A stretch of DNA of 43,842 nucleotides from Oscillospiraceae bacterium (GTDB lineage Bacteria; Bacillota; Clostridia; Oscillospirales; Ruminococcaceae). Position numbers and translations under genes: made by a program. Shown here piece after piece: positions 11,000 through 37,114 of the stretch. Every line of letters begins with the position of its first letter. The stretch's first letter is position 1. The notes under the pieces are model-generated. The model saw nothing but the letters and a program-made list of their open reading frames with translations, searched no databases and was not told the DNA's origin. Location: assembly GCA_017545185.1 (NCBI GenBank), contig JAFWQJ010000024.1, positions 1-43,842 of the forward strand. Reading direction: 5' to 3'.

Positions 11000-11002
11000 G
11001 GT

Positions 11003-11102
11003 ATCGCTTCGCGATGATTTGAAATGGGGCTCCGCCCCTAAACATGAAGAAACTTGTTTCTTCATGTTGGCCCCTGCTGGGGACATTGTCCCCAGACCCC
11101 AT
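11003..11102 (+). repeat. hairpin-module intergenic repeat, copy A
   Basis: This stretch after metY contains a chain of perfect stem-loops: ATCGC/GCGAT (11003-11015), GGGGC/GCCCC (11026-11038), a 13 bp stem AACATGAAGAAAC with its complement (11041-11068), and CTGGGGAC/GTCCCCAG (11077-11095), then ACCCCATTAT. The same chain without the 13 bp module occurs in reverse orientation at 25931-26004. The loops are only 2-3 bases. It is non-coding by appearance; function is unknown. Confidence 0.8.
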
Positions 11103-11114
11103 TATGTGTAATAC

Positions 11115-11147
11115 AAAAGGACGCTGAAAGAATCGGCGTCCTTTTTG
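11115..11147 (+). terminator. intrinsic terminator of metY (GGACGC family)
   Basis: AAAAGGACGC pairs with GCGTCCTTTTT around an 11-base loop. The same GGACGC stem recurs as terminator at 29210 and 35130. Confidence 0.85.
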
Positions 11148-11150
11148 CAT

Positions 11151-11196
11151 CCGGTCAAGTGGTAGGCTGAATGTTTGCAGCCTCACAAAAGTTTCG
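11151..11196 (+). repeat. 46-bp dispersed repeat, copy 1
   Basis: These 46 bases are matched by 34761-34806 in the same orientation with about five differences. Both contain GTGGTAGGCT, GTTTGCAGCCTCA and AAAAGTTTCG, with AGGCT able to pair with AGCCT. Both copies lie next to hairpin arrays and GGACGC terminators. No reading frame of note is conserved. Confidence 0.75.
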
Positions 11197-29209: not shown

Positions 29210-29247
29210 AAAAAGGACGCTGATGCGATGCATTCAGCGTCCTTTTG
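29210..29247. terminator. bidirectional terminator between engB and nadC (GGACGC family)
   Basis: AAAAGGACGCTGA pairs perfectly with TCAGCGTCCTTTT (13 bp) around a 10-base loop. It lies between convergent genes and has T runs on both strands. It shares the GGACGC stem with terminators at 11115 and 35130. Confidence 0.88.
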
Positions 29248-29346
29248 TGTTTGTCGTTATATTGCCGGCGGTTCTCATAATTGGGAGAAGAAATGCCAAA
29301 GAAGCCGCTCCGCGGCGTGTACCGCGAAAAATGGGAGTGCTCCGCT

Positions 29347-30216
29347 TCAGGTCTCCGGAGGGATTTGCCTGCAGACGCTGTCTGCCCACTTCATGGAGAT
29401 GTCGAAGGCTTTGACGCTGTGGGTCAGGGCACCGATCGAAATGATATCCACGCCGGTTTCCGCAACGCCGCGCAGCGTGTCATGCGTAATGCCGCCCGAT
29501 GCTTCCAGCATTGCACGGCCGTCCGTGATGCGCACAGCCTCGCGCATGGTGTCGTTGTCCATGTTATCAAGCATGATGATATCCGCCTTTGCTTCGAGCG
29601 CCTCGCGGAGCTCGTCCAGCGTGCGTACTTCGACCTCAATGCGGACCATGTGCCCGATATGCTGCCGGAGCTGCGTGATCGCCGGGAGAATGCCGCCGCA
29701 GGCGTCAATGTGATTGTCTTTCAGCATCGCGCCGTCGGAGAGATTGAACCGGTGATTCTTGCCGCCGCCGCAGCGTACCGCATATTTCTGCATGGCGCGG
29801 ATGCCGACCATGCACTTGCGCGTGTCTGCGATCGACGCATTCGTGCCCGCAACGATATCCACGCATCTGCGCGTTTCCGTTGCAATGCCGGAGAGATGCT
29901 GCAGCAGATTCAGCGCGGTGCGTTCACCTTTCAGGAGCGTTCGGGTTCTGCCGTGCATCGTCGCGAGAATGTCGCCGTATTTCACTCTGTCGCCGTCCTT
30001 TGCCTGCGCCGTGAAGCTGACGCCCTCACCGGCCAGCGCAAAGACCCGCTCCGCGATCTCCATGCCGCAGAGCACGCCCTCGTCCTTTGCCATGAGATAG
30101 GCGTCGGATTCATGCGCTTCGTCCAGCAGAAAATCGCTCGTGATATCCATTCCGGTGATGTCCTCGTGCAGCGCACGGAGGATCACCTCGTCAACATAAG
30201 AACGCAGCAGCTCCAT
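29347..30216 (-). CDS. nadC: nicotinate-nucleotide diphosphorylase (quinolinate phosphoribosyltransferase)
   Basis: NadC converts quinolinate and PRPP to nicotinate mononucleotide. The 289-residue protein begins MELLRSYVDEVILRALHEDI and has LKGERTALNLLQHLSGIAT, ADTRKCMVGIRAMQKYAV, RCGGGKNHRFNLSDGAMLKDNHI and the late ISIGALTHS segment, all family hallmarks. Its ATG overlaps the nadB stop by one base (TAATG), so the two are coupled. Start 30216 is set by GGAGC upstream and that overlap. Confidence 0.96.
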   Translation of the reverse strand: MELLRSYVDEVILRALHEDITGMDITSDFLLDEAHESDAYLMAKDEGVLCGMEIAERVFALAGEGVSFTAQAKDGDRVKYGDILATMHGRTRTLLKGERTALNLLQHLSGIATETRRCVDIVAGTNASIADTRKCMVGIRAMQKYAVRCGGGKNHRFNLSDGAMLKDNHIDACGGILPAITQLRQHIGHMVRIEVEVRTLDELREALEAKADIIMLDNMDNDTMREAVRITDGRAMLEASGGITHDTLRGVAETGVDIISIGALTHSVKAFDISMKWADSVCRQIPPET

Positions 30217-33033: not shown

Positions 33034-33110
33034 GAAAATGTATCAACACCCCCCTCTCTCCGGATGTGTCAGCAGACATGTCCGTACAACAAAGTTCAGG
33101 AGAAAATGCG

Positions 33111-34667
33111 ATGAAAAAACGAACGGCGATTCTGACGGCGCTGCTGCTTGCTGCGGGCAGCGCGATGCCCGTCCGTGCGGCAGATACCGAGCTGCTGCGG
33201 GCAGATTTTGAGAGCGGACTTTCCGGCTGGGAATCCCGCGGCGGCGCAAGCGTTGCAGTCTCCGCGGATGCAGCCGCAGAGGGTTCCGCATCCGCAGCCG
33301 TGACGGACCGCTCGGCGGCATGGAACGGGATTTCGTATGCAGTCGGCAGCAAATGTCCGGCGGGTACCTGCATCAGCGTGCAGGCACAGGTCATGCAACG
33401 CTCCGGCGAAAGCGTGCATTTCAAAATGACGATGCAGTATCAGAGCGGCGGGCAGGCGGTCTACGACACCTTTGCCGAGGGCGATGCCGCATCCGGCGAA
33501 TGGACAAAGCTTTCTGCGGAGAGCTACACGGTGCCGCAGGGAACTGACCCCGTGCTGTATTTTGAGACCGACACCGCGACCTGTGATTTTTATCTGGACG
33601 ACGTTGTCATCACGCGGATCGGCGCGGCCGTTCTGCCGTCGGGCAATTTCAGAAAGGGCGACGCAGACCACAGCGGAAAGGTCGAAAAAGCGGATGCCGA
33701 AGCGCTCCGTGATTATCTGCTCGGCAAAGACAGCGCCGTCGGCAAGGACGCTGCCGATCTGGACGGCGACGGCGTGCTGACCGCGAAGGATCTCTCCGGA
33801 TTAAAGGATCTGCTGCTGAATCCGCCTGCGGAGCCGGAGCATGATACGGATTATATGTCCAAGGTGCGCGACCAGATCAGCACGAATGTGCCGCAGTCGA
33901 TCCAGCGGAATGCAGGCGGCAAGCTGGAGCACATCACCTATTTCTCCCAGACGGCGAACCGCAATAAGGGCGCGAATGTCTGGATGCCGCCGGGGTATGA
34001 CACATCCGAGCAGTATCCGGTGCTCTATGTCAACCACGGCTACGGCGGCGACGAAAACACGATGGCCAACAGCAGCGCGATCCGGGAAATGGCGACGAAT
34101 CTGATCCAGAGCGGCGACGCGGTGCCGATGATCATTGTGTTCACGGATCAGTATTCCGACCCGGCGCACCAGAAGCAGACCGGCAACGGTCAGGCGGACG
34201 TTCCGGGCTATGACTTATTTGTCGAGGATATGCCGGGCAGCCTGATGCCGTATATCGAATCACATTATCCGGTCAAGACTGGCCGTGAATACACCGCGAT
34301 CTCGGGCTTTTCGATGGGCGGCAGAGAATCGCTGTATATCGGCATGAAGTGCTGCGACAAGATCGGCTATATCGGCGCGGCGGCACCGGCACCGGGCATC
34401 TTCCGGACAAAGGATCAGTTCATGGATCACCCGGGCGTCATGACCAAGGACGAGATCCGGATCGACCCGCCGTATTCGCCGTATCTGCTGCTGATCGCGG
34501 GCGGCACGAGCGACAACATGGTCAACGATTTCCCGGAGCAGTATCACAAGCTGTTCACGGAGCACGGCACGGAGAATATCTTTATGCCGGTACCGGGCGG
34601 CGGTCATGACGACAGCACGGTCATTCCGCTGATGTACAATTTCATCCGCCTGATCTTCAAAGCCTAG
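33111..34667 (+). CDS. secreted CBM-dockerin-CE1 esterase (feruloyl/acetyl esterase type), copy 1
   Basis: The ATG at 33111 follows AGGAGA. The 518-residue product has a signal peptide (about residues 1-23), a beta-sandwich carbohydrate-binding region of CBM4/9 or CBM22 type (FESGLSGWESRGG, then DFYLDDVVI near 165), an internal type I dockerin (183-241, GDADHSGKVEKADAEAL and DLDGDGVLTAKDLSGL), and a CE1 alpha/beta-hydrolase (about 250-518). The nucleophile is S401 in GFSMGG and the likely histidine is H499 in GGGHDDS. It would cleave ester side chains from xylan while docked on a scaffold. Domain order matches its neighbour at 35492, so the two are paralogs. Confidence 0.9.
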   Translation: MKKRTAILTALLLAAGSAMPVRAADTELLRADFESGLSGWESRGGASVAVSADAAAEGSASAAVTDRSAAWNGISYAVGSKCPAGTCISVQAQVMQRSGESVHFKMTMQYQSGGQAVYDTFAEGDAASGEWTKLSAESYTVPQGTDPVLYFETDTATCDFYLDDVVITRIGAAVLPSGNFRKGDADHSGKVEKADAEALRDYLLGKDSAVGKDAADLDGDGVLTAKDLSGLKDLLLNPPAEPEHDTDYMSKVRDQISTNVPQSIQRNAGGKLEHITYFSQTANRNKGANVWMPPGYDTSEQYPVLYVNHGYGGDENTMANSSAIREMATNLIQSGDAVPMIIVFTDQYSDPAHQKQTGNGQADVPGYDLFVEDMPGSLMPYIESHYPVKTGREYTAISGFSMGGRESLYIGMKCCDKIGYIGAAAPAPGIFRTKDQFMDHPGVMTKDEIRIDPPYSPYLLLIAGGTSDNMVNDFPEQYHKLFTEHGTENIFMPVPGGGHDDSTVIPLMYNFIRLIFKA

Positions 34668-34760
34668 CGCGGAGCCCGCGCTGGCGTTTCCCTTCGGAGA
34701 CGGTGAGCGGAGAACTCCCAACATTCGCAACGCACGCCGCGGGTGTTGCTGTGAATACTG

Positions 34761-34806
34761 CCGGTCAGGTGGTAGGCTAACCGTTTGCAGCCTCATAAAA
34801 GTTTCG
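34761..34806 (+). repeat. 46-bp dispersed repeat, copy 2
   Basis: This block matches 11151-11196 at about 41 of 46 positions in the same orientation. It lies just before the hairpin array, whereas copy 1 lies just after a GGACGC terminator. Confidence 0.75.
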
Positions 34807-35129
34807 GCCAAGCCTTTTTAAAGGCTTGCAGAGTCCAGAGGCAGAGCCTCTGGTCGCCGTCCGCAGACGGCGAAACTCCCCAGCGTCAGGCGCACCGCAA
34901 GGGTGAATTTCAAAAACGCTCCGGGGGAGCGTTTTTGAAAGAGGGACGCCCTGTAAGAGAGGGCGTCCCTAGGCGGATTGCAGAGCAATCCGCGACGCCT
35001 GTTCCGCGCATGAGCAACATCAGTTGCGATGAGCGAAACAGGCAGGTTTCCAAAGGGCGGGAGCCCTTGGGGTGCGTGCGGGCAGTGCCCGCCTCTGCCG
35101 GTGCGGAAGCTTGACGGAACTGAACATGC

Positions 35130-35165
35130 AAAGGACGCTGATGACAGGATCGGCGTCCTTTTTTG
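35130..35165 (+). terminator. terminator closing the hairpin array (GGACGC family)
   Basis: AAAGGACGC pairs with GCGTCCTTTTTT around a loop of about 15 bases. Its stem matches the terminators at 11115 and 29210. Confidence 0.8.
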
Positions 35166-35236: not shown

Positions 35237-35491
35237 ATACTGCATTTTCCCGAATGCCTGCACGCGCCCGCCGGACTGAACCGTATTATAACCGGAAACA
35301 AATCCGGTTTCGGCGTAAAACCGCGCCGGAATCTGAAAAAAACATAAATAATTCATCCTTTTTCATAAAAATACCCCCTATCATTCCGCCCGAAAATCAA
35401 GTAAAATAAAAATGTATAGCCCTTTGCACATCCGGTGCAGACAGGCTGTGCACAGAAAGAAACATATTATATGATTCAGGGGGAATTTAAA

Positions 35492-37114
35492 ATGCAGAAG
35501 AAAAAGCGCAAACTGTTTGCCGCTTCGGCGGCGTGTGCGCTGCTGATGCAGACCGCGGCGATGCTGCCGGTCTCTGCAGCGGACGACTACATCTTCAGTG
35601 ACGGGTTTGAATCCGGCGAAGGCGGCTGGGAGGGACGCGGCGGCGCGACCGTCAAAACGACCTCATCCGAACCGTATGCGGGCTCCGGCGCACTGTCCGT
35701 CACAGGCCGTTCGGATTCGTGGCACGGCGCACAGAAGGACATCTCGTCGGTCTGCACGGCAGGGGAGACCTACTGCTTCAGCGTCTGCGCCCGCTATGAC
35801 AGCGGTCCGTCGTCGGTGACGTTCATGCTGTCGCTTGTGTACAAGGACAGCGCCGGCGAAACGACATACGCGCATCTCGCGGAAGCGGAGACAATGAGCG
35901 GCTTCTATGTGCAGCTGGTCAACGATTCGTACACGCTGCCCGCCGGTGCGACCGATCCGATCCTTTATGTGGAGACGAAGTCCGGCAGCACCTCGTTTAC
36001 GATCGACGAAGCGATCTGCGCACCGAAGGGGACACAGATCGACGGGCCGAAGCCGGTGAAGTTCAATCTCGGTGATGTCAATTATGACGGCTGCATCAAT
36101 GCCGCAGACTTCACCCTTGCAAAGCGCTATGCGGGCAAGGATTTCCCGAGCAAGACGATGCTCCGCGCTGCGGACGTCGATCAGAGTGGGACGGTCGATT
36201 CCGCGGATACCGGCTGGTATCAGAAGTTCCTGACGGCGCAGGAAACGGCATATCCGGAGCCTGTCAAGCCGCCGGTCGAGCCTTACAACTATCAGCCGCT
36301 GAAATACCACAGCTTTGACGAGCGCGTGTATCTGAGCCAGTCCTCGCATCCGGGCAAGGTCATCGAGGAGCATTATCAAGGGCCGAAGGGCACCAACACC
36401 TGCTATGTCTATCTCCCGCCCGATTACGACGAGAATCAGAAGTACAACATCTTCTATCTGATGCACGGCGGCGGCGAGAACGAGCGGACGCTTTTCTTCC
36501 AGGATGACACGATGATGCAGAACATCTTTGACCACATGATCGAAAACGGCGATATGGATCCGCTGATCGTGGTCACGCCGACATGGAACCAGACCGGTGC
36601 CGATCAGTTCTATTCCGAGCTGCGCGACCGCCTGATCCCGTATGTCGAGGGCAAATACTCCACCTATGCGGAATCGACCGCAATCGAGGACATTCAGGCA
36701 TCGCGTTATCACCGCGCATACGGCGGCTTCTCGATGGGCTCTGTCTCCACATGGGGCGTGTTCCTGAACGAGCTCGATATCATCGCGTACTATATGCCGC
36801 TTTCCGGCGAGTACAAGGTCAGCAACCTGTCGATCCAGACGCAGGCGCAGATGATCACCGGCGCGATCGACAAGGCCGGCCTGCAGAAGAACGAATACTT
36901 CATCATGGGCGCGACCGGCTCGAACGATATGGCGCAGCCGCAGATGACGCCGCTGATGAACGAGCTGCGGAAGTACGACCACTTCATTGAGACCTCTGAC
37001 CTTTCGCAGGGCAATTTCTTCTATATGGTTGTGGACGGCAAGGAGCACTGGTGGGGACATGTCCGCCACTATATCTACGATATGCTGCCGTATTTCTTCC
37101 ACGAGGAGCACTGA
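35492..37114 (+). CDS. secreted CBM-dockerin-CE1 esterase, copy 2
   Basis: The ATG at 35492 follows GGGGGA; an upstream in-frame ATG at 35435 would place extra residues before the signal peptide. The 540-residue product has a signal peptide (about 1-29), a CBM4/9 or CBM22-like region (FESGEGGWEGRGG), an internal dockerin (about 193-250, GDVNYDGCINAADFTLAKRY and ADVDQSGTVDSADTGWYQ), and a CE1 esterase. Catalytic S414 lies in GGFSMGS; H519 in GKEHWW is the likely catalytic histidine, as in feruloyl esterases where this His precedes aromatic residues. It is closer to feruloyl esterase/XynZ-type domains than copy 1. Same domain order as copy 1, but clearly diverged. Confidence 0.9.
   Translation: MQKKKRKLFAASAACALLMQTAAMLPVSAADDYIFSDGFESGEGGWEGRGGATVKTTSSEPYAGSGALSVTGRSDSWHGAQKDISSVCTAGETYCFSVCARYDSGPSSVTFMLSLVYKDSAGETTYAHLAEAETMSGFYVQLVNDSYTLPAGATDPILYVETKSGSTSFTIDEAICAPKGTQIDGPKPVKFNLGDVNYDGCINAADFTLAKRYAGKDFPSKTMLRAADVDQSGTVDSADTGWYQKFLTAQETAYPEPVKPPVEPYNYQPLKYHSFDERVYLSQSSHPGKVIEEHYQGPKGTNTCYVYLPPDYDENQKYNIFYLMHGGGENERTLFFQDDTMMQNIFDHMIENGDMDPLIVVTPTWNQTGADQFYSELRDRLIPYVEGKYSTYAESTAIEDIQASRYHRAYGGFSMGSVSTWGVFLNELDIIAYYMPLSGEYKVSNLSIQTQAQMITGAIDKAGLQKNEYFIMGATGSNDMAQPQMTPLMNELRKYDHFIETSDLSQGNFFYMVVDGKEHWWGHVRHYIYDMLPYFFHEEH

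What the first reader, a model, noticed from the sequence alone, without database searches (positions are those of the whole stretch)
34666..35165. Dense back-to-back hairpin array of about 500 bp
Seen: ten or so stems, most perfect (15, 11, 9 and 8 bp), with tiny loops, two of which share the loop AGA, packed with almost no spacers and capped by a GGACGC terminator. It is not CRISPR (units differ in sequence) and holds no gene. It shares the 46-bp element with the metY locus. Inference: an assembly of hairpin cassettes inserted one after another, which may be a previously undescribed repeat system of this lineage.
Basis: partly seen in the sequence, partly recalled or inferred. Interest (0 to 1): 0.75.

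Follow-up and report, generated by a model that had tools for sequence, protein, structure and literature searches.

The report
Recombining hairpin-array repeats behind Ruminococcus genes
This 500-base cluster of hairpins is one copy of a long repeat found many times behind gene ends in this gut bacterium and its relatives, and its hairpins seem to be swapped between copies with both arms together, which may show how palindromes spread and stay perfect in bacterial genomes.

Summary
The hairpin array at 34664-35163 is real and far above chance. It is not a unique pile of stray cassettes but one copy of a composite repeat (order P-R/S-T-B-C-D-E-F-G-H-I-J-K-L, with M-N before or after); a covariance model of its core gives 60 matches in this genome and matches in 28 of 30 genus genomes. 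Module order is nearly fixed (274 of 290 adjacent pairs), so free shuffling is not supported. Within that order hairpins do behave like cassettes. Stem alleles C, D and E show no detectable linkage among 27 copies, while F-G-H are linked. Against a sister species, 20 of 550 scorable orthologous stem pairs changed on both sides and still pair; fewer than two double changes are expected. One stem type occupies two slots; a 26-base palindrome in or beside array hairpins has 14 versus 35 sites in the sisters. Copies lie behind gene ends, oriented with the upstream gene (47 of 55), often beyond a terminator, rarely between divergent genes. One 466-bp copy is present/absent between sisters, flanked by CAG/CAG. 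No Y1 transposase was found. Best reading: a non-autonomous interspersed palindromic repeat, akin to BOX/BIME, whose hairpins reassort by recombination between copies.

The parts
33066..34667 (+). upstream gene, 533 aa, homologues in 30 of 30 genus genomes; the array begins at its stop codon
34664..34689 (+). first hairpin, overlaps the stop codon; the sister species has an extra, different hairpin unit at this point
34690..34743 (+). module M, also matched without the core at other places in the genome; tandemly repeated at the orthologous locus of the sister species
34761..34806 (+). module B, the 46-bp element shared with 11151-11196
34809..34828 (+). hairpin C, 9-bp stem; stem alleles differ between copies
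34835..34853 (+). hairpin D, 8-bp stem, loop AGA; alleles differ between copies; site of the nested palindrome in some other copies
34854..34873 (+). hairpin E, 8-bp stem; alleles differ between copies
34876..34907 (+). linker F, linked with G and H
34908..34940 (+). hairpin G, 15-bp perfect stem whose arms carry A5/T5, terminator-like on both strands by my loose test
34942..34970 (+). hairpin H, 11-bp stem with a conserved loop; most conserved part
34973..34993 (+). hairpin I, 9-bp stem, loop AGA
34997..35043 (+). hairpin J, long imperfect stem; a different stem stands here in one sister orthologue (L010/L217)
35050..35072 (+). hairpin K
   Evidence: sequence; slots
35078..35092 (+). hairpin L (GCGGGCAGTGCCCGC)
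   Evidence: sequence; order
35130..35163 (+). module T, GGACGC-type hairpin with T run; in many other copies a T module precedes B
11000..11196 (+). truncated copy of the same order at the metY locus: P, Q with nested 26-base palindrome (11042-11067), R, T (11116-11146), B (11151-11196)
29212..29363 (-). T and M matches; synteny with the sister contig begins at 29300

Best explanation
The array is one copy of a non-autonomous, interspersed, composite palindromic repeat family of Ruminococcus and relatives. SHOWN by sequence comparison: many copies per genome, nearly fixed module order, position behind gene ends in the sense of the upstream gene, stems that vary but keep Watson-Crick pairing, presence/absence of one whole copy between sister species, stems that differ on both arms at orthologous loci. 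INFERRED: whole arrays and sub-blocks are copied as DNA into the space between a stop codon and the next promoter, where they are tolerated, often beyond the gene's own terminator; the many dispersed copies then recombine (gene conversion through conserved linkers and loops, possibly helped by template switching within hairpins at the replication fork), so that both arms of a hairpin change together and C, D and E reassort while F-G-H move as a block. Hairpin G, with A5 and T5 in its arms, may act as a two-way transcription barrier, a plausible side benefit. What copies the element is unknown.
For: 60 model matches in this genome and 2-79 in each of the 28 of 30 genus genomes with any (lower bounds, 91 candidates scored per genome). 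Order: 274 of 290 adjacent module pairs in canonical order, 51 of 60 core loci. Covariation on 62 rows: 95.0% of cells paired vs 81.5% shuffled; 33 of 49 pairs with double changes; 400 double-change cells vs 114 shuffled and 41-71 when slid. Few wobble pairs: 18 G-T, 11 A-C, 28 other internal mismatches to 7191 Watson-Crick pairs in 141 arrays, against 36, 17 and 13 to 516 in 59 terminators, which favours a DNA-level process over selection on an RNA. Orthologous stems with the sister at 5.5% flank divergence, 12 locus pairs: 515 same, 20 both sides changed and paired, 1 both changed and broken, 14 one side; 206 skipped, 2 gapped. Linkage: F-G-H linked (p 0.005 or less), C, D, E not with each other (p 0.17-0.94). 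Upstream gene in the same sense in 47 of 55 and 51 of 65; divergent 1 of 55, 4 of 65 vs 54 of 227 background gaps. Terminator-like hairpin between a same-sense gene and the core in 26 of 47. Empty site of L002 in the sister, 466 bp, CAG/CAG.
Against: The one clean present/absent copy cannot be polarised: CAG/CAG may be a target duplication or a 3-base deletion scar, and in nine further genus genomes the two flanks are not adjacent. No mobilising enzyme was identified. Linkage tests rest on 11-21 copies each, some of them orthologues of each other. The G-T test favours near-perfect stems by design, and the terminator pattern itself permits a wobble. In the two sister genomes G-T exceeds A-C, 10 to 2, as an RNA would show. 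Order over many genera with conserved loops would also suit a functional RNA.
Confidence: 0.6

Rival explanations
1. A conserved structured RNA element (3' UTR element or small RNA) with several hairpins, present in many copies; covariation reflects selection on RNA folding.
For: Core order and loops conserved across genera, strong covariation, strand bias with the upstream gene; G-T over A-C 10 to 2 in the two sisters.
Against: Few wobble pairs overall, and in the named genomes G-T and A-C are equal, 8 and 9; more than half of the same-sense copies lie beyond a terminator-like hairpin (26 of 47); alleles of adjacent hairpins C, D, E unlinked; hairpin G changes length and type between genomes; no Rfam family.
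Confidence: 0.15
2. A transcription or supercoiling insulator kept by selection behind gene ends (works like E. coli BIMEs or a bidirectional terminator cluster), spread by recombination only.
For: Position behind gene ends and rarity in divergent gaps; terminator-like hairpin in the core on the + strand in 36 and the - strand in 37 of 55 copies (loose definition).
Against: Insertion into promoters would be selected against anyway, so position alone does not show function; one orthologous locus lives without it; 2 of 30 genus genomes, neither complete, show no match.
Confidence: 0.15
3. True hairpin-cassette insertion: single hairpins are mobile units recognised as folded DNA by an unknown enzyme, each inserted separately.
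For: 26-base palindrome in or beside array hairpins at all 16 sites read, 14 vs 35 sites in the sisters, 1 in a third species; the stem TTCTTAGGGC/GCCCTAAG in slot D in 4 and slot K in 3 of 44 copies; extra hairpin units at the orthologous locus.
Against: Order is nearly fixed; no Y1 transposase match; no hairpin-specific recombinase identified.
Confidence: 0.1

Closest known systems
BOX elements of Streptococcus pneumoniae (PMC3049150, passages seen)
   Same: interspersed, 125 elements in one genome, built of modules that can be absent or repeated, predicted to fold, taken by the authors for parasitic elements that move rarely
   Different: three module types in pneumococcus against a dozen or more here; no sequence relation tested; here hairpin stems differ on both arms between orthologous copies, and the core spans several genera
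REP/BIME and REPINs of Enterobacteria and Pseudomonas (recalled)
   Same: palindromic, behind gene ends, many copies
   Different: typical REP units are 20-40 bp with a linked Y1 (RAYT) transposase (recalled); no Y1 match in this genome; arrays here are about 470-500 bp with a fixed order
MITEs / Correia, ERIC, RUP (PMC2229807, abstract and section list only)
   Same: short interspersed non-autonomous repeats with secondary structure
   Different: no clear terminal inverted repeat found; only one possible 3-base target duplication
Repetitive hairpin-forming elements of sponge mitochondria (PMC2800124, abstract and section list only)
   Same: recurrent invasion of intergenic regions by hairpin elements that differ between close relatives
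   Different: animal organelle DNA; no relation tested

Membership tests
REP/BIME (RAYT-associated) | Y1 transposase of the RAYT type in the genome | tested here: not met
   no match to PF01797 in the genome (95% complete); control positive in 5 of 14 known genomes
REP/BIME (RAYT-associated) | many palindromic intergenic copies behind gene ends | tested here: met
MITE | terminal inverted repeats | tested here: inconclusive
   read by eye: the ends of the L002 copy share only CGGGCAG, offset by nine bases (sequence)
MITE | target-site duplication at an empty site | tested here: inconclusive
   one site, CAG/CAG, not polarised
BOX-like modular repeat | separable modules with internal copy-number change | tested here: met
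   tandem M units at the orthologous locus, modules lost or alone
BOX-like modular repeat | sequence homology to BOX | not tested
   no BOX sequence was compared
CRISPR array | identical direct repeats with unique spacers | tested here: not met
   longest direct repeat 12 nt, two copies, outside the array (copies at most 100 nt apart)
Known structured RNA family | match to an Rfam model at its gathering score | tested here: not met
   whole window; permissive; lowest E-value 0.11, score below cut-off
Integron attC cassette array | integron integrase nearby or in genome | not tested
   not searched

The most novel reading that the evidence does not exclude
A hairpin-exchange system in Ruminococcus and relatives: hairpins are discrete, heritable units that are swapped, nested and multiplied within ordered arrays by a process that acts on folded single-stranded DNA (a dedicated enzyme or replication-fork template switching), keeping the arms complementary genome-wide.
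Probability: 0.2. Interest if true: 0.85.

Novelty: new variant of a known kind. Interest (0 to 1): 0.57.

Why it matters
Covariation is the usual evidence for an RNA structure. Here strong covariation comes with few wobble pairs, unlinked neighbouring stems and stems that differ on both arms between sister species, so arrays like this could mimic RNA families while evolving by DNA exchange. The family is common in gut and rumen Ruminococcus and relatives, sits at some contig ends and synteny breaks, and gives a natural record of how palindromes spread and stay perfect.

Tried and rejected
CRISPR, a gene, and an Rfam RNA were tested and rejected. A Y1 transposase was sought and not found. Free shuffling of cassettes was rejected on order: 16 of 290 adjacent pairs are out of order, 8 of them a T hairpin after K or I, 4 a K-type stem in slot D, the other 4 of kinds that include misreadings of my loose patterns. 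Phage origin: one unannotated phage record of 50,697 matches C-E at 84%, not followed. A wobble-asymmetry test for RNA on one strand was inconclusive: 18 vs 11 in all, 10 vs 2 in the sisters, 8 vs 9 elsewhere. Polarising the empty site with nine relatives failed. For L006 the two flanks lie on different contigs of the sister, so it gave no empty site.

Rows dropped: of 70 extracted cores 8 were left out of alignment A1 (three odd, five with nested insertions). The 70 were those H copies with a recognisable C start 125-190 nt before H, so order C-H in other genera was judged on these, not on every H copy; of 60 loci, L027 and L236 had no core match and 3 had no called upstream gene; 55 were counted; of 13 orthologous loci, L018/L227 was left out. 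One search counts a few gaps twice, since loci overlap, and shows 0 of 43 divergent where one search shows 1 of 55.

Full report
WHAT IS THERE. The stretch 34664-35163 of the window is packed with about a dozen hairpins, six of them perfect stems of 8-15 bp. Against dinucleotide shuffles this is far from chance (6 vs 0.08 hairpins; energy z -8.8). It begins on the stop codon of a 533-aa gene and ends with a GGACGC hairpin and T run about 270 nt before the next called gene. The 46-bp element shared with the metY locus is module B; there too the order is P, Q, R, T, B, starting directly behind a stop codon.

IT IS A DISPERSED REPEAT. A search of the whole genome with the array gave 101 pieces (40 of 226 candidates scored); the next 17 after the array itself each span at least 182 query bases at 74-91% identity. 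A covariance model of the core C-H (62 sequences, 49 pairs) gives 60 matches in this genome and matches in 28 of 30 genomes of the genus (at most 91 candidates scored per genome). In the family, the DNA search finds the core or part of it in 22 of 148 genomes; in the class, the model with stricter filters finds it in 14 of 291; both counts include this genome. The sister genome G149 has the contig lengths of Ruminococcus sp. Phil11. A second block, M-N, has 60 matched pieces of its own.

ORDER. Regular expressions for 17 modules were run over 90 loci. A count restricted to the 60 core loci of the two sister genomes and to 12 modules (E, L, M, N, Q left out as too permissive or variable) found 274 of 290 adjacent pairs in the order P, R or S, T, B, C, F, G, H, I, J, K, in 51 loci with two or more modules; for F-K alone 170 of 174. 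The exceptions are mostly T after K or I (8) and a K-type stem in slot D (4). M-N stands before T-B or after L. The expressions miss divergent modules. In other genera the core C-H keeps its order in the copies extracted with a recognisable C start.

STEMS. On the alignment 95.0% of cells pair, 33 of 49 pairs show double changes, and 400 cells carry them (shuffled 114, slid 41-71). Wobble pairs are scarce: 18 G-T, 11 A-C and 28 other internal mismatches to 7191 Watson-Crick pairs in 736 hairpins of 141 arrays. In 59 terminator hairpins from loci of the two sister genomes the figures are 36, 17 and 13 to 516. Both measures are biased, the first towards perfect stems, the second by the search pattern, but the contrast is large. 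Split by source, G-T to A-C is 10 to 2 in the sisters and 8 to 9 elsewhere, so a weak RNA signal in this lineage is not excluded.

SISTER SPECIES. Of 30 core loci here, 13 have an orthologous locus among 30 fetched from G149. The window's own array is there, with flanks 94-97% identical, tandem extra M units, and hairpin G changed on both arms (TTTC/GAAA to TCAT/ATGA, ACGC/GCGT to ATGC/GCAT); part of C-E is an N gap in G149. Over 12 aligned pairs of loci 550 stem pairs could be scored: 515 same, 20 changed on both sides and paired, 1 changed on both and broken, 14 changed on one side; 206 were skipped for poor alignment and 2 were gapped. With 5.5% flank divergence fewer than two double changes would be expected if sides changed independently. 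At L017/L212 stems C, D and E all differ while F, G and H are identical. In 27 copies F-G-H are linked (p 0.005 or less) and C, D and E are not linked with each other (p 0.17 to 0.94) (11-21 copies per test, so weak linkage could be missed).

CASSETTE-LIKE BEHAVIOUR. The stem TTCTTAGGGC/GCCCTAAG sits in slot D in 4 and in slot K in 3 of 44 copies of H in the 60 loci. A 26-base palindrome (up to 2 mismatches) occurs at 14 sites here, 35 in G149, 1 in G153 and 0 in G063, with a reversed-pattern control of 0; all 16 sites that I read lie in or beside array hairpins.

WHERE IT SITS. The core points the same way as the upstream gene in 23 of 27 copies here and 24 of 28 in G149, and in 51 of 65 copies of the named set. 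It lies between divergent genes in 1 of these 55 and in 4 of 65, against 54 of 227 background gaps; in another count, gaps holding H are divergent in 0 of 43 cases and gaps without it in 15 of 58. Genes were called by my own codon-score method, not by a standard caller. A terminator-like hairpin lies between a same-sense upstream gene and the core in 26 of 47 copies; a terminator-like hairpin lies in the core on the + strand in 36 and on the - strand in 37 of 55 (loose definition).

MOVEMENT. At L002 the sister lacks the array exactly: 466 bp flanked by CAG/CAG, between a stop codon and a promoter-like sequence read by eye. The event cannot be polarised: in nine other genus genomes both flanks are found but are not neighbours, two on one contig and seven on different contigs. 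At the window locus three further relatives (76-78% identical protein) show no core behind the gene, but their downstream genes differ. No Y1 transposase match is in the genome. Repeats coincide with a synteny break at window 29300 and with flanks on different sister contigs at L006.

READING. The simplest account is a non-autonomous composite palindromic repeat that accumulates behind gene ends and whose hairpins are exchanged between copies. It resembles BOX in modularity (PMC3049150, passages) and BIMEs in position (recalled), but exchange of hairpins as units inside fixed slots, over several genera, is not something I saw described in the listings of nine library searches. The driver of copying and any benefit to the host are unknown.

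Noticed in passing
window 29212-29363: Synteny with the sister contig G149:C44 starts at 29300, at a T/M repeat; the sister also has M matches at that point (C44:44127-44479). Suggests rearrangement through repeats.
   Followed up: partly
window 11042-11067: 26-base palindrome ACATGAAGAAACTTGTTTCTTCATGT, 14 sites in this genome, 35 in the sister, 1 in G153: perhaps a recently multiplying micro-palindrome.
   Followed up: partly
G174:C273:1-175, G155:C112:1-168, G165:C24:5-168, G170:C95:8-175, G166:C29:7-162: Several core matches lie within a few bases of contig ends, so these arrays may break short-read assemblies of Ruminococcus.
   Followed up: no
L160 4844, L174 2307: Hairpin H close behind a gene end without a recognisable C-G; possible origin or remnant of the array.
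   Followed up: no
G000:C91:10167-10478 and G000:C2:20275-20566: Tandem pieces of the M-N block, 31 or 62 and 106 bases apart.
   Followed up: no
phage record MT836235.1:1494-1575: C-E hairpins at 84% in an unannotated 13.8-kb record from human faeces labelled as phage.
   Followed up: no
window 33066-34667 and 35435-37114: Two neighbouring distant paralogues (about 32% identity) of a family with 9-44 matches per genus genome.
   Followed up: no
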